Origin: Capillimicrobium parvum
Lineage (GTDB): Bacteria > Actinomycetota > Thermoleophilia > Solirubrobacterales > Solirubrobacteraceae
Assembly: GCF_021172045.1 (NCBI RefSeq)
Contig: NZ_CP087164.1
Location: 682,001-746,000 of the forward strand
Direction of reading: 5' to 3'
DNA length: 64,000 nt
Within the stretch, counting starts at the first letter, position 1, and each line of letters starts with the position of its first letter. A program made the position numbers and the translations under genes. Below the pieces are notes generated by a model. It saw only the letters and a program-made list of their open reading frames with translations, had not been told where the DNA came from and did no database searches. Below, in pieces: positions 4,937-51,620 of the stretch.

Positions 4937-6547
4937 TCACGCGGCGCCCGACGCCGCGGCGGCCCGGCGGCCCGCCCGGATGAGGTCGGCGGCCTTCTCG
5001 GCGATCATGATCGTGGGGGCGTTCGTGTTGCCGCGGGTGACCGACGGCATCACCGACGCGTCGACCACGCGCAGGCCCTCGACGCCGTAGACCCGCAGCT
5101 CTGGGTCGACGACCTGGCCCATCGCGCACGTGGACGTCGGGTGGTAGACGGTCTGGGCGACGCGCCGGACGAAGGCGAGGACGTCGTCGTCGGAGTCGGA
5201 GTCGGGCACGCGGAACGGCTCGCGCTCGATGGCCTTCAGCGGCGCCTGGCGCGCGATCTCCATGGCGATCCGGACGCCGGCGATCATGCTCTGCCGGTCC
5301 TCCTCGGTCGTCAGGTAGTTGTGCAGGATGCGCGGCTTGGAGTCCGGCAGCGGCGCGCGCAGCATGACCTTGCCGCGGCTGGTGGGCTTCGCGCCGAGCG
5401 GACCGAACGTGTAGGCGTGGTCGTGGGGCGGCGTGAGCCCCTCGTCGTAGAAGAGCGCGGGGGCGAAGTGGAACTGGATGTCGGGCGCGTCGAGCCCGGG
5501 CCGCGTGCGGACGAACGCGCCCGCCTCGGGGATGTTCGAGCTCAGCGGGCCGCGGCCCTCCTGCTCGAGGAGGGCGATGTTCTCCGGCGTCATCGCGGTC
5601 AGCAGCGACTCCTCGTCAGTGAGGAAGTTCAGCTGCGTCATGAGGTGGTCCTGCAGGTTCTCGCCGACGGGGAGATCCTCGCGCACGTCGATCTGCATGA
5701 GCTCGAGGTCGCCCGCGGGCCCGATCCCCGACAGCATCAGCAGCACGGGCGTCTGGTAGGCGCCCGCGCAGACGATCACCTCGCGCTCGGCGCGCACGAC
5801 GCTGACCCGGCCGAGCCGGGAGATCTCGACGCCCGCGGCCCGATCGCGCTCGAAGACGATCCGCAGCGCCAGCGCGTCGGTGATGACGTCGAGGTTCGGG
5901 CGCTCCATCGCCGGATGCAGGTAGGCCACCGCCGCGCTGCAGCGCAGGCCGCCTCGCTGCGTGAGCTGGAAGCGGCCCACGCCCTCCTGGCGCGCGCCGT
6001 TGAGGTCCGGGTTGTGCTCGTGGCCCGCCTCCACCGCGGCCTGGACCATCGTGTCGACGAGCGGGTGCATCGAGCGGCTCTCGGACACGCTCAGCGGGCC
6101 GCCGACGCCGTGGAAGGCGTCCTCGCCGCGCTCGTTGTCCTCCGCGCGCTTGAAGTACGGCAGGACGTCGTCGTAGCCCCAGCCCTCGCAGCCCTGCTCG
6201 GCCCACTCGTCGTAGTCGCGCCGGTTGCCGCGGATGTAGATCATCGCGTTGATCGAGCTCGAGCCGCCGAGGACGCGGCCGCGGGGGAGGTACAGGCGCC
6301 GGCCGCCGAGCCCGGGCTCGGGCTCGCCGTAGAGGTCCCAGTCGACGCTCGACTTGAACAGGGCGGGAAAGGCCATCGGCGTGTGGATCTCCGGGGCGCT
6401 GTCCGCGCCGCCGGCCTCGACGACCGCCACGCGGACGTCCGGGTCCTCCGTGAGCCGCGCGGCGAGCACGCAGCCCGCGGAGCCCGCGCCGACGATCACG
6501 TAGTCGTGGACCGGCCGCTCGGCCGGCTCAGAAGCCTCTGATGACAA
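4937..6547 (-). CDS. GMC-family FAD-dependent alcohol/choline oxidoreductase
   Basis: 536 residues, normal GMC length. The N-terminal dinucleotide fold VIVGAGSAGCVLAARL is at about 17-32, followed by the GMC signatures PRGRVLGGSSSINAMIY and GIGPAGDL. The active-site His is in YHPTSTCAMG (about 468) and the second catalytic position in TRGNTNAPT. Such enzymes (choline, polyethylene glycol and other alcohol dehydrogenases) oxidise a primary alcohol to the aldehyde with FAD. The only sensible start is TTG 6547, which overlaps the end of the alcohol dehydrogenase relic by 20 bases. Pairing with an ALDH and an AraC regulator recalls polymer- or aromatic-alcohol catabolic operons; the substrate is not known. 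Confidence 0.85.
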   Translation of the reverse strand: MSSEASEPAERPVHDYVIVGAGSAGCVLAARLTEDPDVRVAVVEAGGADSAPEIHTPMAFPALFKSSVDWDLYGEPEPGLGGRRLYLPRGRVLGGSSSINAMIYIRGNRRDYDEWAEQGCEGWGYDDVLPYFKRAEDNERGEDAFHGVGGPLSVSESRSMHPLVDTMVQAAVEAGHEHNPDLNGARQEGVGRFQLTQRGGLRCSAAVAYLHPAMERPNLDVITDALALRIVFERDRAAGVEISRLGRVSVVRAEREVIVCAGAYQTPVLLMLSGIGPAGDLELMQIDVREDLPVGENLQDHLMTQLNFLTDEESLLTAMTPENIALLEQEGRGPLSSNIPEAGAFVRTRPGLDAPDIQFHFAPALFYDEGLTPPHDHAYTFGPLGAKPTSRGKVMLRAPLPDSKPRILHNYLTTEEDRQSMIAGVRIAMEIARQAPLKAIEREPFRVPDSDSDDDVLAFVRRVAQTVYHPTSTCAMGQVVDPELRVYGVEGLRVVDASVMPSVTRGNTNAPTIMIAEKAADLIRAGRRAAAASGAA

Positions 6548-6812: not shown

Positions 6813-6876
6813 ACGGTAGACCCGCCGCGGCGCGCGAGCCAGTCCCCCAGCGCTGGCTTTCTTGCCGATACGTGCG
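6813..6876 (-). promoter_or_regulatory. Activator-type promoter, copy 2 of the twin architecture
   Basis: Minus-strand CGCACG (6871-6876), six variable bases, CAAGAAAGCCAGCGCT (6849-6864), then exactly the same 30-base gap as at 1471-1538 before TACCGTCGGC (6809-6818). The -10 TACCGT is 6813-6818. It lies seven bases before GTG 6805, so the transcript would be leaderless for the relic and carry the GMC and ALDH genes downstream. Sequence between the elements is not conserved, so the box and -10 are the constrained parts. Confidence 0.6.
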
Positions 6877-7105
6877 TCGGCCCACGAAGCCCGACCCACC
6901 CGGCGGGTCGAACACCACGAAGTGCCGCGGACGCCCGACCGCCGCGCCGCCGCTCGCCACGCTGACGCGGCGGTTCGCTCGCGACCCGAACGCGCGGCGA
7001 TTCCGCCCCCGGACCGTTCGGACAGGGCCGGTCCCGCCCGTTGGAAGGGGGAAGTCCAGCCGATCGGGAGGCGGCTCACCCCATGCGCGAGACGAGGATG
7101 GGCCG

Positions 7106-8782
7106 ATGAAGAGCAACCTCGAGATCGCGCAGGAAGCCGACCTCCAGCCCATCGACGACATCGCCTCGTCGCTCGGCCTCCTGCCCGAGGAGGTCGAGCC
7201 GTACGGCCGTTACAAGGCCAAGATCACCCTGAGCGTGCTCGAGCGCCTCTCCGACCGGCCGGAGGGCAAGGTCATCTGCGTCGCGGGCGTCACTCCGACG
7301 AAGGCGGGCGAGGGCAAGACGACGACGGCGGTCGGTCTGACCCAGGGCCTGGGGCACATCGGCAAGAACCCTGTGCTGTGCCTGCGCGAGCCGTCGCTGG
7401 GCCCGGTGTTCGGCATGAAGGGCGGGGCGGCCGGCGGTGGCTACACGCAGGTCGTGCCGATGGAGGATCTGAACCTCCACTTCACGGGCGACATCCACGC
7501 CATCAGCGCGGCGAACAACCTGCTGGCGGCGATGCTCGACGCGTCGATCCTGCACGGCAACGTGCACAAGATCGATGCGCTGCAGGTGTCGTGGCGGCGC
7601 GCCGTCGACATCAACGACCGCGCACTGCGCCAGATCACGATCGCTCAGGGGGGGCGGGCCAACGGCTACCCGCGCGAGACCGGGTTCGACATCACGGCCG
7701 CGTCGGAGGTCATGGCGATCACCGCGGTGGCCCGTGACCTGCAGGACCTGCGCCGGCGCCTCGGTGCCATCACCGTCGCCCACAGCTTCGACGGCGGCAA
7801 GCCGGTCACGGCCGAGGATCTGGGGGCGGCCGGCGCAATGGCGGTGCTGCTCAAGGACGCGATCAAGCCGAACCTGATCCAGACCCTCGAGGGGCAGCCG
7901 TGCCTGATGCACTGCGGCCCGTTCGCGAACATCGCCCACGGCAACTCGTCGCTGATCGCCGACCTGATGGGCATGCGCCTCGGCGACTACGTGATCACGG
8001 AGTCGGGCTTCGGCTCGGACATGGGCATGGAGAAGTTCTTCGACATCGTCTGCCGGGTGGGAGGGCTCGTCCCCAGTGCCGTCGTGGTCGTGTGCACGAT
8101 CCGTGCGCTCAAGCACCACGCGGGGCTCGAGGACCCCAACGCCGACCGGCCGCTGGCCCGCGCCGCGTTGGAGACGGGCGCGAACAACATGCGCCGGCAC
8201 ATCGCGATCGTCAAGGAGTTCGGCCTGCCGTGCGTGGTGGCGATCAACCGCCGCCCGGGCGACACGAACGAGGAGGTCGAGATCGCGCGCCGGCTGGCGC
8301 TCGAGTTCGGCGCGGACGGCGCCGAGGTCAACGAGGGCTACGAGCGCGGTGGCGAAGGGGCCGCCGCGCTTGCGCGGGCGGTCGTCGAGGCGGCCGAGAA
8401 GCCGTCGAACTTCGGCCTGATCTACCGCGACGAGGACCCGATCATCGACAAGATCTCGGCGGTCGCGCGGCGCGTCTACGGCGCGTCCGACGTGTACCTC
8501 TATCCCGAGGCGGAGAAGAAGGTCGCGCAGTACACGCGCGACGGCCTCGGCAACCTGCCGATCTGCATGGCCAAGACGCAGTACTCGCTCTCGGCCGATC
8601 CGCAGCTGCTCAACGCACCGGAGAACTTCACGCTGCCGGTGCGCGACATCCGTGCGTACACGGGCGCGGGGTGGCTCGTGCCGCTGTGCGGCGACATCAT
8701 GCAGATGCCCGGCCTCGGCAAGACGCCGGCGGCGTTCGACGTCGACCTCGAGGCGGACGGGCGGATCGTCGGGCTCTTCTAG
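7106..8782 (+). CDS. fhs: Formate--tetrahydrofolate ligase
   Basis: 558 residues, full length. It ligates formate to tetrahydrofolate with ATP, giving 10-formyl-THF; the reverse reaction releases formate and ATP from formyl-THF. The ATP loop TPTKAGEGKTTT is at 63-74, and family blocks LREPSLGPVFGMKGGAAGGG, FTGDIHAI and DIMQMPGLGKTP are intact. ATG 7106 was chosen over longer in-frame starts because homology begins at about this point and a GAGG lies just upstream. The next gene starts 11 bases after its stop and encodes a cyclodeaminase/cyclohydrolase-type protein, so the pair can interconvert formate, formyl-THF and methenyl-THF. Confidence 0.95.
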   Translation: MKSNLEIAQEADLQPIDDIASSLGLLPEEVEPYGRYKAKITLSVLERLSDRPEGKVICVAGVTPTKAGEGKTTTAVGLTQGLGHIGKNPVLCLREPSLGPVFGMKGGAAGGGYTQVVPMEDLNLHFTGDIHAISAANNLLAAMLDASILHGNVHKIDALQVSWRRAVDINDRALRQITIAQGGRANGYPRETGFDITAASEVMAITAVARDLQDLRRRLGAITVAHSFDGGKPVTAEDLGAAGAMAVLLKDAIKPNLIQTLEGQPCLMHCGPFANIAHGNSSLIADLMGMRLGDYVITESGFGSDMGMEKFFDIVCRVGGLVPSAVVVVCTIRALKHHAGLEDPNADRPLARAALETGANNMRRHIAIVKEFGLPCVVAINRRPGDTNEEVEIARRLALEFGADGAEVNEGYERGGEGAAALARAVVEAAEKPSNFGLIYRDEDPIIDKISAVARRVYGASDVYLYPEAEKKVAQYTRDGLGNLPICMAKTQYSLSADPQLLNAPENFTLPVRDIRAYTGAGWLVPLCGDIMQMPGLGKTPAAFDVDLEADGRIVGLF

Positions 8783-14002: not shown

Positions 14003-16090
14003 ATGATCGACCAGCGCTTCGACTCCACCGTCACCACCACCTGCGGCTACTGCGGCGTCGGCTGTCGCCTGGAGGCCCACACCCGCGACGGCCGCGTCGT
14101 CGCCATCAGCCCGGCGCTCGACGGCCCGGCGAACGAGGGGCACACCTGCCTGAAGGGCCGCTTCGCCCACCAGTTCGGCCGCCACCGCCAGCGCCTCACG
14201 ACCCCGCTCATCCGCGAAGGCGACGGCTTCCGCGAGGCGACGTGGGACGAGGCGCTGCGGCGGATCGTCTCCGAGCTGGAGCGCGTCAAGAGCGCCCACG
14301 GTCCCGACGCGATCGCGGGCCTGGCCTCGTCGCGCGCCACCAACGAGGACTGCTTCGCGATGCAGCGCCTCATGCGCGCCGCCATCGGCACGAACAACAT
14401 CGACAACTGCTCGCGCGTGTGCCACTCGCCGACCTCCTACGCGATGCGCCGGTCGCTGGGCATGTCGGGGGCGACCGGCTCCTTCGCCGACATCGACCAC
14501 GCGGACGCCGCCATCATCATCGGCGCCAACCCGACGGAGGCGCACCCCGTCGCGGGGGCGCGCATCAAGCAGGCGGCGCTGCGCGGCATGAAGCTCGTCA
14601 CCATCGACCCGCGCCGCATCGAGCTCGCCGACTACGGGGTCCTGCACCTCTCGCCGCGCGCGGGCACCAACGCGGCGGTGATGCTCGGGCTCCAGCACGT
14701 CGTCGCGCGCGACGGCTTCGTCGACCACGACTTCGTCGACCGGCGCACCGAGGGCTACGACGAGCTCGCCGAGCTGATCGCGCAGTACACGCCCGACGAG
14801 GTGCAGCGGATCACCGGCGTGCCCGCCGCGGACATCGAGGCGGCCGCCCACATCTACGCCGAGGCCGGCGAGGCCTGCGTCATCTGGGGCCTCGGGGTCA
14901 CCGAGCACAAGTACGGCTCGGAGGTCGTGCGCCTCATCTGCAACCTCGCGCTCATGACCGGCAAGGTCGGTCGCCCCGGTTCCGCCCTGCTGCCGATGCG
15001 CGGGCAGAACAACGTCCAGGGCTCCTCGGACGTCGGCGCGCTGCCGGACACCTACTCGGGCTACCGCCGGGTGGGCGACGAGGAGGTCGCCCGCAGCTTC
15101 GAAGCCAAGTGGGGCGTGCCGCTGTCGCGCGAGAAGGGCTACACGATCCCGCAGATGCTCGACGCGGCGGTCGACGGCCAGCTGAAGGCGATGTACATCT
15201 TCGGCGAGGACCCCGCGCAGACCGACCCGGACACGCACCACGTCGTGGCGGCGCTCGAGTCGCTCGACTTCCTCGTCTGTCAGGACATCTTCCAGACCGA
15301 GACGACGAAGTACGCCGACGTGATCCTGCCTGCGGCGACGTTCCTCGAGAAGGAGGGCACGTTCATCAACGCCGAGCGGCGCATCCAGCTCGTGGAGCCG
15401 GTCGTCGCCCCGCCCGGCGAGGCCAGGACGGACCTCGAGATCCTCACCACGGTGTCGCGCGCCCTGGGCCACGAGATGGGCTACACGTGCGCCGAGGACG
15501 TCATGGACGAGATCGCGGCGCTGACCCCCGACTTCGCCGGCGTGACCTACGAGCGGCTGGGCCGGTCGGGCCTGCAGTGGCCGGTCGCGCCGGACGGCAC
15601 CGACGCGCCGATCCTCTACGAGGAGGAGTTCACGCTTCCCGGCGGCAAGGCGCGGTTCGCGCCGCTGCCGTACCTGCCGCCCGGCAGCGAGGCGAGCGAC
15701 GAGTTCCCGCTCGTGCTGGTCACGGGCCGGCGCCTCATGCACTACAACGCCGGCACGATGACCCGGCGCACCGCCAACCTCGACCTGTTCCCGAGCGACG
15801 TGCTGGAGATCCATCCGGACGACGCCGAGCGGCTGTGGATCTCCGACGGCGACCTCGTCTCGGTGCGCAGCCCGGTGGGGCGGATCGAGATCGAGGCGCA
15901 GGTCACCGACTCGATCGAGCGCGGCCACGTCTTCACGGCGTTCCACTTCCCGGAGGTGCGGACGAACGTCCTGATCGGCCAGTCGGCGGACGTGAACACC
16001 TCCTGCCCCGAGTACAAGGTGATGGCGGTCGACGTGCGGCCGGTCCAGGAGGAGCCGTCGCGCATGCCCGCGCTCGCCGCCGGCGACTGA
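14003..16090 (+). CDS. Formate dehydrogenase catalytic (molybdopterin) subunit, cysteine type
   Basis: 695 residues, the length of a core FdhF-like enzyme without an electron-relay extension. The [4Fe-4S] motif CGYCGVGC is at 14-21 with the fourth Cys in CLKG. The Mo ligand is Cys140 in SRVCHSPT, encoded by TGC, with His141 following; E. coli FdhF has selenocysteine at exactly this position. MGD-binding blocks IIGANPTEAHP, TIDPRR, LMTGKVGRPG, MRGQNNVQG and the C-terminal TGRRLMHYNAGTMTRR are intact. It oxidises formate to CO2 and hands electrons through the two upstream subunits to NAD+. Needs bis-MGD, supplied by genes not in this window. Confidence 0.95.
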   Translation: MIDQRFDSTVTTTCGYCGVGCRLEAHTRDGRVVAISPALDGPANEGHTCLKGRFAHQFGRHRQRLTTPLIREGDGFREATWDEALRRIVSELERVKSAHGPDAIAGLASSRATNEDCFAMQRLMRAAIGTNNIDNCSRVCHSPTSYAMRRSLGMSGATGSFADIDHADAAIIIGANPTEAHPVAGARIKQAALRGMKLVTIDPRRIELADYGVLHLSPRAGTNAAVMLGLQHVVARDGFVDHDFVDRRTEGYDELAELIAQYTPDEVQRITGVPAADIEAAAHIYAEAGEACVIWGLGVTEHKYGSEVVRLICNLALMTGKVGRPGSALLPMRGQNNVQGSSDVGALPDTYSGYRRVGDEEVARSFEAKWGVPLSREKGYTIPQMLDAAVDGQLKAMYIFGEDPAQTDPDTHHVVAALESLDFLVCQDIFQTETTKYADVILPAATFLEKEGTFINAERRIQLVEPVVAPPGEARTDLEILTTVSRALGHEMGYTCAEDVMDEIAALTPDFAGVTYERLGRSGLQWPVAPDGTDAPILYEEEFTLPGGKARFAPLPYLPPGSEASDEFPLVLVTGRRLMHYNAGTMTRRTANLDLFPSDVLEIHPDDAERLWISDGDLVSVRSPVGRIEIEAQVTDSIERGHVFTAFHFPEVRTNVLIGQSADVNTSCPEYKVMAVDVRPVQEEPSRMPALAAGD

Positions 16091-42161: not shown

Positions 42162-43646
42162 GTGACCGAGGACTTCGACCGCTGCTACCGGGCCATCCGC
42201 TCGCGCGATCCGCGCTTCGACGGCTGGTTCATCACCGCGGTCACGTCGACCGGGATCTACTGCCGCCCGAGCTGCCCCGCGATGACCCCGAAGCGGGAGA
42301 ACGTGCGCTTCTACCCGTCGGCGGCGGCCGCCCAGCAGGCCGGCTTCCGGGCGTGCAAGCGCTGCCGCCCGGACGCTGCGCCGGGCTCGCCGGAGTGGGA
42401 CGGGCGGGCGGACGTCGTCGCGCGGGCCATGCGCATGATCGCCGACGGCGTCGTCGACCGTGACGGCGTCCCCGGCCTCGCGGCGCAGCTCGGCTACAGC
42501 GTGCGCCAGCTCCAGCGGCTGCTGCTCGCCGAGGTCGGCGCGGGGCCGATCGCGGTCGCCCGCGCCCAGCGCGCCCAGACCGCACGGGTGCTGATCGAGA
42601 CCACGGCGCTGTCGATGACCGACGTCGCGTTCGCCTCCGGCTTCGCCAGCATCCGCCAGTTCAACGACACGGTACGGGCGGTCTTCGCGTCGTCGCCCAC
42701 CGATCTGCGCCGCAGGGCCGCCGCGCGCGACGGCACGACGCCCGCGCCCGGGGCGATCGCCGTGCGGCTGCCGTTTCGCCGGCCGCTGTGCCCGGACAAC
42801 CTCTTCGGCCATCTCGCCGCGACCGCGGTGCCCGGCGTCGAGGAGGTCCGCGGCGCGACCTATCGCCGTACGCTGCGGCTGACCCACGGCGCGGGGATCG
42901 TGGAGCTCACGCCGGCCGCCGACCATGTGGCGTGCCGCCTGATGCTCGCCGACCTGCGCGACCTCGCCGCGGCGATCTCGCGCTCGCGCTGGCTGCTCGA
43001 CCTCGATGCCGACCCGGTCGCCGTCGACGAGCAGCTCGCGACCGACCCGGCGCTCGCGCCGATCGTGCGCGCCGCGCCCGGCCGCCGGGTACCGCGCTGC
43101 GCCGACGGTCCCGAGCTCGCCGTGCGGGCGGTCCTGGGCCAGCAGATCTCGACCGCCGCGGCGCGGACCTACGCCGCGCGGCTCGTTACCGCGATCGGCG
43201 AGCCGGTGGAGGACCGCGGCGGCGGGCTGACGCACCTCTTCCCGGCCCCCGAGGCATTGCGCGAGGTGCCCGTCGCGATGCCGGCGAGCCGGCGGCGCAC
43301 CCTGGCGGCGCTCCTCGACGCGCTGGCCGGCGGGCGCCTCGATCTCGGCCCCGGCTGCGACCGCGAGGCCGCGCTCGACACGCTCGGCCGGCTGCCCGGC
43401 TTCGGCCCGTGGACGATCGGCACGATCGCGATGCGCGCGCTCGGCGATCCCGACGCGTTCGTCGCCGGCGATCTCGGCGTGCGGCGGGCCGCCGAGGCCC
43501 TCGGGCTGCCGGCCACCCCCGGCGCCCTCACCGCCCGCTCGGCCGCGTGGCGGCCATGGCGCGCGTACGCCGTGCAGTACCTGTGGTCGACCGGCGATCA
43601 CGAGATCAACCGCTGGCCGGCCACATCGATCCAAGAGGCCGCATGA
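42162..43646 (+). CDS. Ada-AlkA fusion: DNA-methylation-responsive regulator and 3-methyladenine glycosylase
   Basis: 494 residues. N-terminal Ada zinc domain with Cys34, Cys38, Cys65, Cys68 ([13 protein letters not shown]); Cys34 would accept a methyl group from DNA phosphotriesters. Next an AraC-type helix-turn-helix ([35 protein letters not shown]). The C-terminal half is Alk[11 protein letters not shown], helix-hairpin-helix [17 protein letters not shown] and catalytic Asp437 in AGDLGVRR. It senses alkylation and excises alkylated bases. GTG 42162; ATGA overlap with ogt. Confidence 0.93.
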
Positions 43647-44158
43647 CCCAGATGACGACGGCGACGATCGACAGCCCGATCGGGCCGCTGAGCCTGACCG
43701 CCCGCGACGGGGCGCTGACGCACGTGCACATGCACGAGCAGCGCCACGCCGCGGCGCCGGCGCCCGACGCGCTGCGCGACGACGCCGCGTTCCCGGAGGC
43801 GGTGCGCCAGTTCGCCGAGTACTTCGCGGGCGAGCGGACCGCGTTCGACCTGGCGCTCGCGCCCGGGGGGACGCCGTTCCAGCTGCGGGTCTGGGAGGCG
43901 CTGCGGGAGATCCCCTACGGCGAGACGATCAGCTACGGCGAGCTCGCCCGCCGGGTCGGCAGCCCCGGCGCGTTCCGGGCCGTCGGCCTGGCGAACGGCC
44001 GCAATCCGCTGGCGATCGTCGTCCCCTGCCACCGGGTGATCGGCGCCGACGGCGGGCTCACGGGCTATGGCGGCGGGCTGGAACGCAAGCGCTGGCTGCT
44101 GGCGCACGAGGCCGCGCACCGGCCGGCGCCGGTGGACGGGCAGCTCCAGCTGCAGTGA
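43643..44158 (+). CDS. ogt: Methylated-DNA--protein-cysteine S-methyltransferase
   Basis: 171 residues. Acceptor Cys129 in [10 protein letters not shown], with the arginine finger and HTH in [20 protein letters not shown]. It removes methyl from O6-methylguanine by suicidal transfer. Overlaps the Ada-AlkA stop by four bases, so the alkylation sensor controls its own partner repair enzyme. Confidence 0.94.
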
Positions 44159-45816: not shown

Positions 45817-45847
45817 GGTCCCGTCGTGGACATGATTGTCAACAATC
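45814..45847 (+). promoter_or_regulatory. Leaderless promoter and internal operator of the GntR gene
   Basis: -10 TAAGGT (45814-45819) ends six bases before GTG 45826. A perfect 14-bp dyad GATTGT-CA-ACAATC covers 45834-45847, that is about codons 3 to 8. The xTTGT..ACAAx form suits a FadR/FCD-type GntR dimer. Binding would block transcription at about +9 to +22. Confidence 0.55.
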
Positions 45848-46470
45848 GTGACGACGACGGCTACGTCCGCCTGCGCGACGAGATCGTCACCGGTCGCCTT
45901 CAGCCCAACGAGCGCCTGGTCGAGCTCGACCTCAGCGAGCGCCTCGGGGTCGGCCGCGCCGCGATCCGCACCGCGCTCGTCCGGCTCGAGTCCGAGGGCC
46001 TCGTCGAGCGCGAGCGCCACCGCGGCGCGAAGGTGCGCCTCGTCGACGAGCACGAGGCGGTCGAGATCCTCGAGGCGCGCGCCATGCTCGAGGGGCTGGC
46101 CGCGCGGCACGCCGCCCGCCGCGCGACGCCCGAGGACGTCGCCGGGCTGCGCGAGATCCTCGCCGGGATGCGGACGCGGCTCGACGCCGGCGACCTGCTC
46201 GGCGCTTCGGACCAGAACGCCGTCCTGCACCGCCGCATCCTGCAGATCAGCGGCCACGCCACCGCGCAGCGGCTGATCTCGACCATGCGCTCGCAGCTCG
46301 TGCGCTTCCAGTTCCGCACCATCCTCGTGCCCGGCCGGCCCGAGCGGTCGTTCGCCGAGCACACGGCGATCGTCGGCGCGCTGGAGGCCGGCGACGGCGA
46401 TGCCGCCGAGGCGGCCATGCGCCTCCACCTGTCCCACGTCGCCCAGACCCTGTCCGCCTCACCCGAGTAG
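45826..46470 (+). CDS. GntR-family regulator with FCD effector domain
   Basis: 214 residues. Winged helix: YVRLRDEIVTGRLQPNERLV, ELDLSERLGVGRAAIRTALV. The helical FCD domain follows with ARAMLEGLAARHAARRATPE and the metal/effector histidines in VLHRRILQISGH, then HTAIVGALEAGD and HLSHVAQ. FCD regulators usually respond to organic acids such as ring-cleavage products. First gene of the 45.8-51.6 kb operon; the next gene starts 13 bases later with AGAGGAGAG. Confidence 0.9.
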   Translation: MDMIVNNRDDDGYVRLRDEIVTGRLQPNERLVELDLSERLGVGRAAIRTALVRLESEGLVERERHRGAKVRLVDEHEAVEILEARAMLEGLAARHAARRATPEDVAGLREILAGMRTRLDAGDLLGASDQNAVLHRRILQISGHATAQRLISTMRSQLVRFQFRTILVPGRPERSFAEHTAIVGALEAGDGDAAEAAMRLHLSHVAQTLSASPE

Positions 46471-46483
46471 AGGAGAGCCCAGC

Positions 46484-47608
46484 ATGCCCGCCCGCACCAC
46501 GCCGCCGTTCCGCGCCGACCACGTCGGCAGCCTGCTGCGTCCGAAGTGGCTGCTGCAGGCGCGCGACGACCACAAGGCCGGGCGCATCGACGACGACGAG
46601 CTGCGGGGCAAGGAGGGCGAGGCGATCCTGGAGGCGATCGCCATGCAGCGCGACGTAGGCCTACTGAGCGCCACCGACGGCGAGTTCCGCCGCACGTCGT
46701 GGCACATGGACTTCATCTACTCGCTCGCCGGCGTCTCGCAGGTCGAGGGCGAGTCGATCCACGTGCAGTTCCGCAACGAGGAGGGCGAGTACGACTACGC
46801 GCCCCCGGCGATGCACGTCGACGGGCGCATCGGCCTGCGCGAGACGATCTTCGGCGACGCGTTCCGCTTCCTGCGCGACAACGTCGACGAGCGCATCATG
46901 CCGAAGCTGACGATCCCCTCGCCGTCGATGGTCCACTACCGCGGCGGCAACTCGTCGATCGACCAGTCCGTGTACCCGGACGTCGAGCAGTTCTGGAGCG
47001 ACCTGGCCAGCGCCTACCACGACGAGATGCAGGCCGTCTACGACCTCGGCTGTCGCTACCTGCAGCTCGACGACACGTCGCTGGCCTACGTCAACGACCC
47101 GAAGCAGCGCGAGCACATCGCCGAGATCGGCGGGGATCCCGAGCACCTGCATGAGCAGTACATCGCGAACTTCAACCGCGCGATCGAGGGCCGTCCGGAC
47201 GACCTCACGATCACGACGCACCTGTGCCGCGGCAACAACCAGTCGATGTGGGCCGCGGAGGGCGGCTACGACTTCGTCGCGGAGGCGCTGTTCGGCGACC
47301 TCAACGTCGACGGCTACTTCCTCGAGTTCGACGACGAGCGCTCCGGCGGCTTCGAGCCGCTGCGCTTCGTGCCCAAGGGCAAGGTCGTCGTGCTCGGCCT
47401 GGTGACGACCAAGCGCCCCGAGCTGGAGGACAAGGACATGCTCAAGCGGCGCATCGAGGCGGCGTCGAAGTTCGTGGACCTCGACCAGCTGTGCCTGTCG
47501 CCGCAGTGCGGGTTCTCGAGCACGTGGGAGGGCAACAAGCTCACGCACGACGACCAGAGGGCCAAGCTCGCGCTGATCGTCGAGACCGCGGCCGAGGTCT
47601 GGGGCTGA
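46484..47608 (+). CDS. MetE C-terminal-like (cobalamin-independent methionine synthase family) protein
   Basis: 374 residues, one TIM-barrel unit like YxjG-type proteins rather than the ~750-residue MetE. FRADHVGSLLRP opens the barrel; SATDGEFRRTSWHMDFIYSL and YLQLDDTSLAY are substrate loops. Zinc ligands are His246-x-Cys248 (THLCRG) and Cys342 (LSPQCGFSS), the H-x-C ... C set of MetE. The family transfers methyl groups to a zinc-bound thiol; several members act in catabolic operons on unknown donors. Here it heads a ring-cleavage operon, so methyl transfer from a methoxylated substrate is conceivable but unproven. Confidence 0.85.
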   Translation: MPARTTPPFRADHVGSLLRPKWLLQARDDHKAGRIDDDELRGKEGEAILEAIAMQRDVGLLSATDGEFRRTSWHMDFIYSLAGVSQVEGESIHVQFRNEEGEYDYAPPAMHVDGRIGLRETIFGDAFRFLRDNVDERIMPKLTIPSPSMVHYRGGNSSIDQSVYPDVEQFWSDLASAYHDEMQAVYDLGCRYLQLDDTSLAYVNDPKQREHIAEIGGDPEHLHEQYIANFNRAIEGRPDDLTITTHLCRGNNQSMWAAEGGYDFVAEALFGDLNVDGYFLEFDDERSGGFEPLRFVPKGKVVVLGLVTTKRPELEDKDMLKRRIEAASKFVDLDQLCLSPQCGFSSTWEGNKLTHDDQRAKLALIVETAAEVWG

Positions 47609-47609
47609 G

Positions 47610-48365
47610 GTGACCGTCGTCGGCATCCTCGGCCTGGGCGAGGCCGGCGGGCTGATCGCGGCCGACCTGCGCGCGGCGGGAGCGACGGTGCGCGGCTACG
47701 ACCCGCTGCCCGCGACCCGACCGGACGCGGGCAGCGAGGCCGAGGCGGCGGCGGGGGCCGACGTCGTGCTGAGCCTGACGACCGCGGCGCATGCGCGGGA
47801 GGCCGCCGAGGCGGCCGCCGGCGCGCTGCGGCCCGGCCAGCTCTACGCCGACCTCAACACCTCGGGCGCCGCGCTCAAGCAGGAGCTCGCGACGCTCGTG
47901 GCGCCGACCGGCGCCGCGTTCGCCGACGTGGCGCTCATGGCGCCGGTGCCGGACCACGGGCTGCGCACGCCGGCGCTCGCGTCCGGGCCCGGTGCCGAAG
48001 CGTTCTCGGCCGCGCTCGGGGCGCTCGGCATGCCGGTCGAGACGGTGGGCGCGCGGCCGGGCGACGCCGCCCAGCGCAAGCTGCTGCGCAGCGTCCTGTG
48101 GAAGGGGATGGCGGCGGTCGTCACCGAGGCGCTCGCCGCCGCGCGCGCCGCGGGCGAGGAGGCGTGGATGCGCGAGCAGATCGTCTCGGTCTTCGAGTCG
48201 GCCGACGGCGCGCTCGCCGCGCACATGGAGACGGGCAGCATCCGGCACGCGCAGCGCCGGATGCGCGAGATGGAGGAAGCGGCGGCGATGCTCGATGAGC
48301 TCGGCGTCCGACCGCGCGTGGCCGAGGCGGCCGCCGCCTGGCTGCAGGAGCTGCAACGTGGCTGA
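47610..48365 (+). CDS. NAD(P)-binding 6-phosphogluconate-dehydrogenase-like protein (DUF1932 C-terminus)
   Basis: 251 residues. Rossmann start VGILGLGEAGGLIAADL, then GADVVLSLTTAAHA and YADLNTSGAALKQ as in beta-hydroxyacid dehydrogenases, with the C-terminal helical domain of the DUF1932 type (AQRKLLRSVLWKGMAAVVTE, Lys in catalytic position). It could oxidise a hydroxy acid or cyclic hemiacetal. GTG 47610 follows the MetE-like stop by one base; overlaps the next gene by eight bases. Confidence 0.82.
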   Translation: MTVVGILGLGEAGGLIAADLRAAGATVRGYDPLPATRPDAGSEAEAAAGADVVLSLTTAAHAREAAEAAAGALRPGQLYADLNTSGAALKQELATLVAPTGAAFADVALMAPVPDHGLRTPALASGPGAEAFSAALGALGMPVETVGARPGDAAQRKLLRSVLWKGMAAVVTEALAAARAAGEEAWMREQIVSVFESADGALAAHMETGSIRHAQRRMREMEEAAAMLDELGVRPRVAEAAAAWLQELQRG

Positions 48366-49284
48366 TCACCCGGAGCCCAGCGACCGCGCGCGTGAGCTGG
48401 TGCGCGGCGCGGTCGACTACCACGTCCACATCGCGCCGGACTTCGTCGACCGGCGCATCACCGACGTCGGCCTGGCCCGCCGCTGTCTGGAGACCGGGCA
48501 GGCCGGGTTCGGCCTGAAGTCGCACTACACGTCGACCGCCGAGCGCGCCCAGGTCGTCGCCGAGGCGGTGCCGGGCGTCACGGTGCTCGGGACCATCACC
48601 CTGAACCGCAGCATCGGCGGGCTCAACCCGCTCGCGGTGGAGATCGCGGCGCGGGAGGGGGCGCGCGTCGTGTGGTTTCCGACGGTCTCCTCGGTCAACG
48701 AGCAGCACGAGGTGCTGAAGGCAGATCCGAACGGCAAGGTGCCGGTCTGGGTGCGCTTCGAGCTGTCGCTGCGCGAGGCCGGGCTGGCGTGCGAGCCGGT
48801 GCCGGTGGTCGACGGGGCGGGCGCTCTGCTGCCGGAGGCGCGCGAGGTGCTCGGCGTCATCGCCCGCCACGAGATGGTCCTGTGCACCGGCCACCTCTCG
48901 CGCGACGAGATCTTCACGCTCGTCGACGGGGCGGTCGAGGCGGGCGTGCGCCAGATCGTCGTCACGCACCCGGAGTTCCCATCGCAGAACGTGTCGGCCG
49001 CCGACCAGGTCGCGCTGGCCGAGCGCGGCGCGCTGCTCGAGCGCTGCTTCACGACGACGTACACGGGCAAGGCGCCGTGGGAGCGCTTCTTCGAGGCGAC
49101 CCGCGCGGTCGGCGCCGAGCGCACGCTGTGGTCGACCGACCTCGGCCAGAGGTTCAACCCGCCGGTCGAGGACGGCATGGCCCTGATGGCCGACCGCTTC
49201 CTCGAGGCCGGCTTCAGCGACGAGGAGGTCGCGACGATGGCGGTCACCAACACGCGGCGGATCGCGGGACTGGAGGCGCTCTGA
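48358..49284 (+). CDS. DUF6282-like metal-dependent hydrolase of the amidohydrolase fold
   Basis: 308 residues. VDYHVHIAPDFVDRRITD carries the HxH metal motif near residue 23, GFGLKSHYTST has a Lys/His pair, VLCTGHLSRDEIF and VVTHPEFPSQNVS give further His ligands, and LWSTDLGQRFNPP the terminal Asp. The order is that of amidohydrolases, and matches proteins annotated DUF6282. In this operon it occupies the place of a lactonase (LigI-like) step. GTG 48358. Confidence 0.78.
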   Translation: MADHPEPSDRARELVRGAVDYHVHIAPDFVDRRITDVGLARRCLETGQAGFGLKSHYTSTAERAQVVAEAVPGVTVLGTITLNRSIGGLNPLAVEIAAREGARVVWFPTVSSVNEQHEVLKADPNGKVPVWVRFELSLREAGLACEPVPVVDGAGALLPEAREVLGVIARHEMVLCTGHLSRDEIFTLVDGAVEAGVRQIVVTHPEFPSQNVSAADQVALAERGALLERCFTTTYTGKAPWERFFEATRAVGAERTLWSTDLGQRFNPPVEDGMALMADRFLEAGFSDEEVATMAVTNTRRIAGLEAL

Positions 49285-49997
49285 TGGCCCGTCGCATCCA
49301 GGTCATCGGCGCCCACTCGGCGGACTTCGTCTGGCGCGCCGGCGGGGCGATCGCGGCGTGCACCGCGGCCGGCGGCGAGGCCGAGGTCATCGCGCTGTCC
49401 TACGGCGAACGCGGGGAGTCCGGCGAGCTGTGGAAGCAGGAGGGGCAGACGGTCGAGAACGTCAAGGAGATCCGCCACGGCGAGGCCGAGCGCGCCGCGG
49501 ACCATCTCGGCGCGAGCCTCCGCTGCCTCGACATGGGCGACTACCCGCTGCAGGTCGACGGCGACCGGCTGCTGGAGATCGCCGAGGTCATCCGCGCGTT
49601 CGCGCCCGACGTCCTCGTCACCCACACCGACACCGACCCGTTCAACCCGGACCATCCGATCGCGTACGGCGCGGTCGACCGGGCGCGCGGGCTCGCCGCG
49701 GGCGCCGGGGTCCGCAGCGCGTTCGCCACGATCAGGCCGCCCGCGCTGTTCCTGTTCGAGCCCCATCAGCCCGAGCTGTGCAACTTCACGCCGACGACGT
49801 TCGTCGACATCACCGCGGTCTTCGAGCGCAAGCAGGCGGCGATGGCCGAGATGCAGGCGCAGAGGTACCTGCAGACCTACTACGCCGAGCGCGCCGGCCA
49901 CCGCGCCAACCACGCGCGCCGCGCGTCCGGTGACCAGGACGTGCGCCAGGCCGAGGCGTTCCAGCGGGTGATCCCGCAGGTGGTGAGCGAGCTGTGA
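49284..49997 (+). CDS. PIG-L family protein, 4-oxalomesaconate hydratase (GalB)-like
   Basis: 237 residues. Zinc motif GAHSADFVWRAGGAIA near the start, then ALSYGERGESGELWKQEGQT, TDTDPFNPDHPIAYGAV with the third ligand, and FEPHQPELCNFTPTTFVDI. The AHxADFVWRAGG and SYGERGES strings are those of GalB-type 4-oxalomesaconate hydratases of gallate/protocatechuate catabolism, not of GlcNAc-PI or mycothiol deacetylases. It would add water to give 4-carboxy-4-hydroxy-2-oxoadipate. Starts on the stop of the hydrolase gene (TGATG). Confidence 0.82.
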   Translation: MARRIQVIGAHSADFVWRAGGAIAACTAAGGEAEVIALSYGERGESGELWKQEGQTVENVKEIRHGEAERAADHLGASLRCLDMGDYPLQVDGDRLLEIAEVIRAFAPDVLVTHTDTDPFNPDHPIAYGAVDRARGLAAGAGVRSAFATIRPPALFLFEPHQPELCNFTPTTFVDITAVFERKQAAMAEMQAQRYLQTYYAERAGHRANHARRASGDQDVRQAEAFQRVIPQVVSEL

Positions 49998-50049: not shown

Positions 50050-50682
50050 GTGAGCAGCGACACGATCACGGAGCTCGCCCGGCTCGGCTCGGCCACCGTC
50101 TACGAGGCGGGCGGGCGGCGCGGCTACGTCGACCTCGACCTGCACCAGATCGTCCCCGGCTCCCGCGCCGCCGGGCCGGCGCGGACGGTGCGCTGCGGGC
50201 AGGGCGACAACCTGATGGTGCACGCCGCGATGGCCGCGCTGGCGCCCGGCGACGTGCTCGTGCTCACGATGCCCGAGCCGGCGCCGGTCGCGCTCGTCGG
50301 CGACCTGCTCGCCACGCAGGCTCAGGTCCGCGGCGCGGCCGCGGTGCTCGTCGATGCCGCGGTGCGCGACGTCGAGGAGCTGCGCGAGATGGGCCTCCCG
50401 ATCTGGGCGCGGTGGGTGCGCGTCCACGGTGCGGCGAAGGACGTCTCGGGCGCGCTCGACGTGCCGGTCGCCGTCGGCGGGGCGACGATCCGTCCCGGCG
50501 ACGTGCTCGTGCTCGACGCCGACGGCGTCGCGGTGGTCGAGGCCGAGCGCGTCGACGAGGTGCTCGCGGCCTCGCAGGAGCGCGAGCGCAAGGAGGCGGT
50601 CAAGCGCGCCAAGCTGCAGGCGGGCGCCCTGTCCTACGAGCTCGACGGTCTGCGCGAGCGGGTGGAGGGAGCGGCCCCATGA
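50050..50682 (+). CDS. RraA/LigK-like 4-carboxy-4-hydroxy-2-oxoadipate aldolase
   Basis: 210 residues, the RraA-fold HMG/CHA aldolase family. GDLLATQAQVRGAAAVLVDA with Asp102, and Arg106-Asp107 in AAVRDVEE, are the pyruvate/metal-binding positions; CGQGDNLMVHAAMAAL and GDVLVLDADGVAVV complete the fold. LigK/GalC/ProA enzymes split CHA into pyruvate and oxaloacetate. Directly downstream of the GalB-like hydratase, which makes the CHA reading stronger than RNase E inhibitor (RraA). GTG 50050; ATGA overlap with the dioxygenase. Confidence 0.85.
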   Translation: MSSDTITELARLGSATVYEAGGRRGYVDLDLHQIVPGSRAAGPARTVRCGQGDNLMVHAAMAALAPGDVLVLTMPEPAPVALVGDLLATQAQVRGAAAVLVDAAVRDVEELREMGLPIWARWVRVHGAAKDVSGALDVPVAVGGATIRPGDVLVLDADGVAVVEAERVDEVLAASQERERKEAVKRAKLQAGALSYELDGLRERVEGAAP

Positions 50683-51620
50683 TGGACATCGCCCACCTGG
50701 GCCCGGCGGAGCTGCTGACGCCGGCGTTCGACGAGAGCCTGCGGTTCTTCGTCGACGTGATGGGGATGGAGGTCGAGGCGCAGCAGGGCGGCTCGGCGTA
50801 CCTGCGCGCGTGGGGCGACTACCAGCGCCACTCGCTCAAGCTCACCGCCTCGGAGACGTCGGGGCTGGCGGTGCTCGGCCTGCGGGCCAGCAGCCCCGAG
50901 GCGCTCGAGCGCCGCGTCGCGCTGGTCGAGGCGACCGGGCTCGGCGCGGGCTGGCACGACGGCGACGTCGGGCGCGGGCCGTCCTACCGCTTCCGCGACC
51001 CGGACGGCCACGCCTTCGACCTCTACTACGAGACCGAGCGCTACTCGCCGCCCGAGCACCTGCGGCCGTCGCTGAAGAACCAGCCGCAGCGCTACACCGG
51101 CCGCGGCTGCGCGGTCAAGCGCCTCGACCACTGCAACGTGCTGGCGGAGGACGTGCGCGCGAACCGCATGTTCGCGACCGAGGCCCTCGGCTACCGCCTC
51201 TACGAGCGCATCGAGCTCGACGACGGCACGGAGGCCGGTGCGTGGATGAGCGTGACGATCGCCGCCCACGAGCTGATCTACACCGCCGACGCGTACGGCG
51301 CCCGCGGCCGTCTGCACCACCTCGCGTTCTGGGTGGACACGCGCGAGGAGTGCCTGCGCGCCGCCGACATCTTCCTCGACAACGACGTCCACATCGAGGC
51401 GGCCCCGTCGAAGCACGCGATCGCGCAGGGGTTCTTCCTCTACGGCTACGAGCCGGGCGGCAACCGCATCGAGGTGACCACCGGCGGCTACCTGCAGTAC
51501 GACCCCGACCCGGTCACGGTCGTGTGGACCGAGGAGGAGCGGCGGCTCGGGCAGGCCTGGCGGGTCAAGACGGTCGAGACGTTCCACACGTACGGCACGC
51601 CGCCGGTCGCCGGCACCTAG
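50679..51620 (+). CDS. Type I extradiol dioxygenase (catechol 2,3-dioxygenase-like VOC)
   Basis: 313 residues, two VOC modules. Fe ligands His151 (RLDHCNVLA), His213 or 214 (RLHHLAFWV) and Glu265 (NRIEVTTGG) sit at the positions of the classical catechol 2,3-dioxygenases. FRDPDGHAFDLYYETERY and FFLYGYEPGGNRIEV are typical. It cleaves a catechol-type ring next to a hydroxyl. Last gene of the operon, coupled to the aldolase by ATGA, and the apparent entry enzyme of the pathway encoded by the four genes before it. Confidence 0.9.
   Translation: MMDIAHLGPAELLTPAFDESLRFFVDVMGMEVEAQQGGSAYLRAWGDYQRHSLKLTASETSGLAVLGLRASSPEALERRVALVEATGLGAGWHDGDVGRGPSYRFRDPDGHAFDLYYETERYSPPEHLRPSLKNQPQRYTGRGCAVKRLDHCNVLAEDVRANRMFATEALGYRLYERIELDDGTEAGAWMSVTIAAHELIYTADAYGARGRLHHLAFWVDTREECLRAADIFLDNDVHIEAAPSKHAIAQGFFLYGYEPGGNRIEVTTGGYLQYDPDPVTVVWTEEERRLGQAWRVKTVETFHTYGTPPVAGT

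What the first reader, a model, noticed from the sequence alone, without database searches (positions are those of the whole stretch)
46484..47608. MetE-like single-barrel protein heading a ring-cleavage operon: candidate demethylase or methyl carrier
The zinc set His246-x-Cys248 ... Cys342 is kept, so thiol methylation chemistry is possible, but the N-terminal MetE half is absent. Placed first in an aromatic operon, it may take a methyl group from a methoxylated ring (as THF-dependent demethylases do with other folds). The C1 block at 7-17 kb could oxidise that carbon through THF to formate and CO2.
Basis: inference. Interest (0 to 1): 0.6.

Follow-up and report, generated by a model that had tools for sequence, protein, structure and literature searches.

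The report
Zinc methyltransferase in lignin-aromatic operons
A half-size relative of the methionine-making enzyme MetE sits in soil bacteria among genes that break open lignin-derived rings, often where no known enzyme removes the ring's methoxy group, so it may be an overlooked demethylase; this is a prediction and has not been tested at the bench.

Summary
Window 46484-47608 encodes a 374-aa, one-barrel MetE-like protein (NCBIfam NF005085; nearest solved relative Listeria YxjG, 1ypx). All four zinc ligands (H246, C248, E281, C342) and the three MetE homocysteine-binding residues (S16, E67, D196) are kept in essentially all 126 relatives compared. It follows a GntR gene and starts a compact six-gene run: DUF1932, DUF6282, 4-oxalomesaconate hydratase (GalB type), LigK-type aldolase, extradiol dioxygenase. 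The link to aromatics goes well beyond this window. 27 of 126 relatives lie within 7.5 kb of protocatechuate/4-hydroxybenzoate or gallate-type genes, against 0 of 40 control stretches; five sit 18-55 bp behind pobA. In 232 genomes of the order, 36 of 41 with the gene also have PcaH (14 of 191 without it; p about 2e-25), and 23 of those 36 lack both VanA and a LigM-like protein. Best explanation: an oxygen- and corrinoid-independent aryl-O-demethylase that moves the methoxy methyl to a zinc-bound thiol (vanillate to protocatechuate, or syringate/3-O-methylgallate to gallate). Linkage is shown; the reaction, substrate and acceptor are inferred. The main rival is a methyl-handling methionine synthase. 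I found no report of such an enzyme.

The parts
45826..46470 (+). GntR/FCD transcriptional regulator, likely controls the operon
   Evidence: PF07729 and PF00392; a related GntR gene also adjoins the MetE-like or ring-cleavage genes in L039, L065, L074, L077, L101, L102, L105
46484..47608 (+). MetE-like single-barrel zinc methyltransferase, candidate aryl-O-demethylase (374 aa)
   Evidence: NF005085 441.9 bits against cut-off 313; 1ypx E 2e-100; AF2 model pLDDT 85, Z 39.1 to 1ypx, 33.0 to 3rpd, 31.8 to T. maritima MetE
47610..48365 (+). DUF1932 / 6-phosphogluconate-dehydrogenase-like NAD(P) oxidoreductase; suggested analogue of LigC (inference)
   Evidence: PF09130, PF03446; next to the MetE-like gene in L039/L203 and L204, and in the same cluster in L065, L070, L074, L101, L102, L105, L115
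48364..49284 (+). DUF6282 family protein (start uncertain); suggested lactonase analogue of LigI (inference)
   Evidence: PF19799 214.7 bits; conserved in the module DUF6282-PIGL-RraA-VOC in L077/L217 and L222; no solved relative
49284..49997 (+). PIG-L family 4-oxalomesaconate hydratase (GalB type)
   Evidence: PF02585; 5cgz 4-oxalmesaconate hydratase E 8e-57
50050..50682 (+). 4-carboxy-4-hydroxy-2-oxoadipate aldolase (LigK/GalC type, RraA-like fold)
   Evidence: NF006731 195.6 bits against cut-off 179
50679..51620 (+). VOC-type extradiol ring-cleavage dioxygenase (catechol 2,3-dioxygenase-like)
   Evidence: PF00903; TIGR03211 316 bits, just under cut-off 320; 9wgj E 6e-114

Best explanation
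The protein is a zinc-dependent, cobalamin- and oxygen-independent methyltransferase with the MetE catalytic barrel that removes the methyl group of a methoxylated aromatic acid (vanillate to protocatechuate, or syringate/3-O-methylgallate towards gallate). The zinc (H246, C248, E281, C342) holds and activates a thiol acceptor; the kept S16/E67/D196 triad suggests homocysteine or a similar amino-thiol. The thiolate attacks the aryl methyl ether and leaves the catechol-type product for the ring-cleavage dioxygenase of the same operon. Shown here: fold, zinc and homocysteine-site conservation, operon structure, conserved linkage to two different ring-cleavage routes, and presence in genomes lacking VanA and LigM-like proteins. 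Inferred: substrate, direct methyl transfer, identity of the acceptor, and how the methylated thiol is turned over.
For: (1) Neighbours: 27 of 126 distinct MetE-like loci carry PobA/PcaHG/PcaB/PcaD or OMA-tautomerase/LigK/PIG-L genes within 7.5 kb, against 0 of 40 control stretches from the same genomes (p 3e-4). In L091, L113, L114, L115 and L118 the gene starts 18-55 bp behind pobA, with an aldehyde dehydrogenase gene before pobA in L113, L114 and L118. (2) The neighbours belong to two ring-cleavage routes (protocatechuate 3,4 and gallate/4,5 type) that switch at least three times on the tree, so the shared step is upstream of ring cleavage, where demethylation lies. (3) Profile: of 232 genomes of the order, 41 have the gene and 50 have PcaH; 36 have both (odds ratio 91, p 2e-25), a stronger link to PcaH than that of VanA or the LigM-like protein. 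(4) 23 of those 36 have neither VanA_C nor a LigM-like protein. (5) Zinc and homocysteine-site residues are universal, while the stretch holding MetE's folate-side Trp is replaced by PSPSMVHYRGG.
Against: No biochemical test exists. About four fifths of the relatives have no such neighbour in the DNA held (many contigs are short), including most of the nearest orthologues (74-78%). If homocysteine is the acceptor, methionine would form far beyond biosynthetic need at catabolic flux; a recycling route is not evident. The own genome also has a LigM-like THF-dependent demethylase candidate at 3807208-3808563, so vanillate may not need this enzyme there. Cytochrome P450 demethylases were not surveyed. 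The genome profile is not corrected for phylogeny, and gene-rich generalist genomes could inflate it.
Confidence: 0.5

Rival explanations
1. It is a folate-independent or low-folate methionine synthase (core-MetE type) that takes up the methyl group freed by another demethylase, so it handles C1 units rather than attacking the ring.
For: All MetE zinc and homocysteine residues are kept; core methionine synthases with the same domain are known (PMC7857596). The own genome has no full-length MetE and has a LigM-like demethylase candidate in a second aromatic hub with distant MetE-like paralogues. LigM-like proteins and the MetE-like gene co-occur in the order (11 of 15) and share a locus in L186/L189.
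Against: 23 of the 36 genomes with the gene and PcaH have neither VanA nor a LigM-like protein, so there would be no known supplier of the methyl. In the pobA operons no demethylase gene is next to it. No corrinoid protein or MesX-like partner was recognised beside it.
Confidence: 0.25
2. It is a thiol alkyl- or aryl-transferase of another kind (as epoxyalkane:coenzyme M transferase is within the wider MetE fold), for example making or splitting a thioether of a ring-cleavage intermediate or quinone.
For: The zinc-thiolate chemistry of the fold is not limited to methyl groups (established knowledge of XecA-type enzymes); the gene lies with ring-cleavage genes rather than methionine genes.
Against: The homocysteine-site triad is universal, which argues for an amino-thiol and methyl-type chemistry. 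The gene goes with two chemically different ring-cleavage routes, which suits a step before ring opening.
Confidence: 0.12
3. Ordinary methionine synthase or orphan paralogue of a large family that is only incidentally near aromatic genes (14-17 PF01717-like hits in this genome).
For: The family is strongly expanded in this genome. Many loci have unrelated neighbours, and distant relatives in Klebsiella, Roseinatronobacter, Providencia and Priestia are not in aromatic operons.
Against: 27/126 against 0/40 for neighbours and the genome-wide link with PcaH are not expected by chance.
Confidence: 0.13

Closest known systems
YxjG-type MetE-like proteins (NCBIfam NF005085; Listeria 1ypx)
   Same: 48% identity over the structural alignment, Z 39, same zinc and homocysteine-site residues, same HxCRGN and SPQCGF motifs
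   Different: Aligned segments next to the active site differ: S72 and L200 are Trp in 1ypx, M75 is Phe, Y79 is Glu (alignment). No function reported for 1ypx was found, and aromatic operon context was not seen in the Bacillota relative looked at
Cobalamin-independent methionine synthase MetE (T. maritima, E. coli)
   Same: C-terminal catalytic barrel, zinc ligands, homocysteine-site residues; Z 31.8
   Different: No N-terminal barrel; the segment holding MetE's folate-side Trp is replaced; about 17% identity
Core methionine synthases MesA-MesD (PMC7857596)
   Same: One barrel, zinc and homocysteine residues; MesD 3rpd Z 33.0
   Different: Different subfamily (24% identity to 3rpd); no MesX or corrinoid partner recognised beside it; linked to ring-cleavage genes
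LigM / DesA THF-dependent aryl-O-demethylases
   Same: Proposed reaction: oxygen-independent O-demethylation of vanillate, syringate or 3-O-methylgallate
   Different: LigM/DesA have the GcvT fold and a THF acceptor; this protein has the MetE fold and a zinc-thiolate site. A separate LigM-like protein is in the same genome
VanAB and GcoAB-type oxidative O-demethylases
   Same: Fill the same step of lignin-monomer catabolism
   Different: Rieske or P450 oxygenases; VanA_C is absent from the own genome and rare in the order

Membership tests
NCBIfam NF005085 (PRK06520, YxjG-like MetE subfamily) | Score over the curated cut-off over the whole length | tested here: met
   441.9 bits against 313, residues 4-373
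MetE catalytic barrel (PF01717) | Zn ligands His-x-Cys, Glu, Cys | tested here: met
   H246, C248, E281 in 126/126; C342 in 125 with one gap
MetE catalytic barrel (PF01717) | Homocysteine-binding Ser, Glu, Asp (E. coli S433, E484, D599) | tested here: met
   S16, E67, D196 in 126/126; correspondence from the alignment with 1xpg and PMC7857596
Full MetE (EC 2.1.1.14) | N-terminal barrel (PF08267) for methyl-THF, fused or split | tested here: not met
   Only PF01717 is hit; the upstream gene is GntR
Core methionine synthase MesA-MesD | Methionine formation from homocysteine without methyl-THF | not testable with these tools
   Needs enzyme assay
MesD | Partner MesX beside it | not tested
   No MesX profile was run; none of the neighbours named looks like one
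Aryl-O-demethylase (function) | Linkage to genes consuming the demethylated product | tested here: met
Aryl-O-demethylase (function) | Methyl transfer from a methoxylated arene | not testable with these tools
   Needs enzyme assay
LigM/DesA (GCV_T fold) | GcvT domain PF01571 | tested here: not met
   No PF01571 hit to the protein; AF2 model is a MetE/UROD barrel
VanA Rieske O-demethylase | Rieske and VanA_C domains | tested here: not met
   VanA_C absent from the own genome
Epoxyalkane:CoM transferase | Sequence subfamily and CoM-binding residues | not tested
   No solved or held reference was compared

The most novel reading that the evidence does not exclude
A new class of aryl-O-demethylase: single-protein, zinc-thiolate, needing neither oxygen, THF-binding GcvT fold nor corrinoid, used by many soil Actinomycetota (Solirubrobacterales, Rubrobacter, Streptosporangiales, Actinomadura) for methoxylated lignin monomers, feeding either protocatechuate 3,4-cleavage or a gallate-type route assembled from unusual enzymes (DUF1932, DUF6282, PIG-L, VOC).
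Probability: 0.42. Interest if true: 0.82.

Novelty: new variant of a known kind. Interest (0 to 1): 0.62.

Why it matters
O-demethylation is a bottleneck step in lignin use, and lignin-assimilating Solirubrobacterales have been reported without a Rieske demethylase, their demethylation being ascribed to DesA-like proteins (PMC9296663). If this family does it, a group of proteins annotated as methionine synthase is misnamed, the missing step in many soil Actinomycetota is found, and a small oxygen-independent enzyme becomes available for lignin upgrading. It would also extend what the MetE zinc-thiolate site can demethylate.

Tried and rejected
Split MetE: rejected, no PF08267 partner in the operon. 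Loss of zinc site in relatives: not seen. LigM/DesA gene inside the C1 block at 7-17 kb: none found. First scan of the C1 block used wrong-strand ORFs and gave nothing useful. Plasmid-borne relatives (Klebsiella next to urea ABC genes, Roseinatronobacter, Providencia, Priestia) gave no aromatic context and are more distant, 43-47%. Distance test on ten long contigs was mixed: four genomes within 12 kb of pobA/pcaH, three over 1 Mb away. Paper searches found no report of a MetE-like O-demethylase, but the library holds open-licence papers only. A choline/betaine methyl-donor reading was considered because a choline-dehydrogenase-like GMC gene adjoins the MetE-like gene in one Solirubrobacterales branch; it does not explain the pobA, pca and gallate-type operons.

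Full report
What is there. Window 46484-47608 (+) is a genuine gene of 374 codons with a ribosome-binding site and strong codon bias. It starts 13 bp after a GntR/FCD regulator gene; DUF1932 starts one base after its stop, DUF6282 and PIG-L overlap their predecessors, the aldolase follows 52 bp later and overlaps the dioxygenase. This reads as one transcription unit. The window lies in a 5.95-Mb one-contig genome; relatives by name are Solirubrobacterales, Conexibacter, Rubrobacter and Streptosporangiales.

What family. The protein scores 441.9 bits to NCBIfam NF005085 (cut-off 313) and hits only PF01717 in Pfam. The nearest solved structure is 1ypx, Listeria YxjG (E 2e-100). An AlphaFold2 model (26 sequences, pLDDT 85, pTM 0.88) aligns to 1ypx with Z 39.1 and rmsd 1.8 over 315 residues, to MesD 3rpd with Z 33.0, to T. 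maritima MetE with zinc and homocysteine with Z 31.8, then to uroporphyrinogen decarboxylases near Z 20-21. So the fold is the MetE catalytic barrel alone.

Active site. Zinc ligands H246, C248, E281 are invariant in 126 aligned relatives and C342 in 125 with one gap; S16, E67 and D196, which align with the MetE residues that hold homocysteine, are invariant too. The MetE segment with its folate-side Trp is replaced by PSPSMVHYRGG (the role of that Trp is from general knowledge). Against 1ypx, two Trp beside the active-site strands become S72 and L200, and M75 and Y79 replace Phe and Glu; S72, M75, Y79 and L200 are invariant in 26 aligned relatives. That these enlarge a second-substrate pocket is inference.

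The operon. PIG-L matches solved 4-oxalomesaconate hydratase 5cgz (E 8e-57); the RraA-like protein passes the 4-carboxy-4-hydroxy-2-oxoadipate aldolase model; the VOC protein is catechol-2,3-dioxygenase-like, just under the cut-off. In L070, L074, L101, L102 and L105 a closely similar set (PIG-L was not seen in L074) occurs with an oxalomesaconate tautomerase (NF033377 over cut-off for L070) instead of DUF6282, and the MetE-like gene is in the cluster. L077/L217 and L222 carry the DUF6282-PIGL-RraA-VOC module a few kb from a MetE-like gene. A reading that fits is: demethylation by the MetE-like protein, extradiol cleavage by VOC, oxidation by DUF1932, lactone opening by DUF6282, hydration by PIG-L, aldol cleavage by the RraA-like protein, i.e. 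a protocatechuate-4,5 or gallate-type route. The roles of DUF1932 and DUF6282 are guesses.

Neighbourhood test. An unbiased clustering of ORFs within 7.5 kb of 123 loci put ALDH, PobA, branched-chain ABC, PcaR/PobR-type IclR, VOC, PcaF, PcaI, PcaHG, PIG-L, LigK, DUF1932, OMA tautomerase, PcaB and PcaD among the commonest neighbours (names or, for PcaF, PcaI and PcaB, by reading the sequence). 27 of 126 loci carry at least one of seven ring-pathway families, 0 of 40 control stretches of 19.9 kb from ten of the same genomes do. On the tree the two pathway labels need four changes, three forced by starred branches.

Genome profile test. In 232 genomes of the order, MetE-like (E <= 1e-140) is in 41, PcaH in 50, both in 36; Fisher p 2e-25. 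VanA_C is in 10 and a LigM-like protein in 15; their links to PcaH are weaker. 23 of the 36 have neither. Of 67 genomes with the gene, drawn from order and phylum, 61 have PcaH and 60 PobA. Relatedness is not corrected for, but genera g8, g9, g14 and g28 show the two genes together in some species and both absent in others.

Against a simple story. The own genome has a LigM-like protein at 3807208-3808563 (LigM 5x1i E 4e-51) beside a Rieske oxygenase and near further, distant MetE-like paralogues and an HpaB-like hydroxylase. LigM-like and MetE-like genes co-occur more than expected. So a role in passing on methyl groups is a live rival. If homocysteine were the only acceptor, catabolic flux would make surplus methionine; I see no recycling route. 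Most close orthologues (74-78%) are not in aromatic operons.

C1 block. Formate-THF ligase (6872-8782), FTCD_C, formate dehydrogenase (14003-16090) and FdhD are real, but no LigM-like gene is there and the block sits beside a choline-dehydrogenase-like gene (583.5 bits, below cut-off 605), so choline or betaine is as likely a C1 source.

Literature. Price et al. describe four core methionine synthase families; YxjG is not named there (PMC7857596). PMC9296663 reports lignin-assimilating Solirubrobacterales and Rubrobacter without Rieske demethylase in the key genome and proposes DesA-like enzymes; L076 here, whose isolate name is HOT.MB2.74, appears to be the Rubrobacter MAG MB2.74 of that study and carries the MetE-like gene. 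No report of a MetE-like demethylase was found.

Verdict.

Noticed in passing
G000:C1:3796000-3836000 (L120, L121, L276): Second aromatic hub in the own genome: LigM-like protein, Rieske ring hydroxylase, molybdenum hydroxylase, HpaB-like hydroxylase and at least four distant MetE-like paralogues.
   Followed up: partly
whole genome G000: 14-17 PF01717/MetE-like genes or fragments in one genome and no full-length MetE, an unusual expansion.
   Followed up: partly
window 47610-49284: DUF1932 and DUF6282 proteins recur with oxalomesaconate-pathway genes and may be unrecognised dehydrogenase and lactonase steps.
   Followed up: partly
window 4937-6547; L077, L103, L117, L199, L219, L220: A choline-dehydrogenase-like GMC oxidoreductase 73-75% identical to the window's own lies beside MetE-like genes in one Solirubrobacterales branch.
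   Followed up: partly
window 42162-44158: By sequence, an Ada/AlkA-like fusion gene followed by a methylated-DNA cysteine methyltransferase gene, i.e. alkylation repair, 2 kb upstream of the methyl-chemistry operon; not scanned with profiles.
   Followed up: no
L084:9305-9982 and L100:5092-5808: Short MetE-like ORFs directly upstream of the full MetE-like gene, possible duplicate or decayed copies.
   Followed up: no
L186, L189: LigM-like, MetE-like, PIG-L, LigK and GntR genes within about 17 kb in two genomes of another family.
   Followed up: partly
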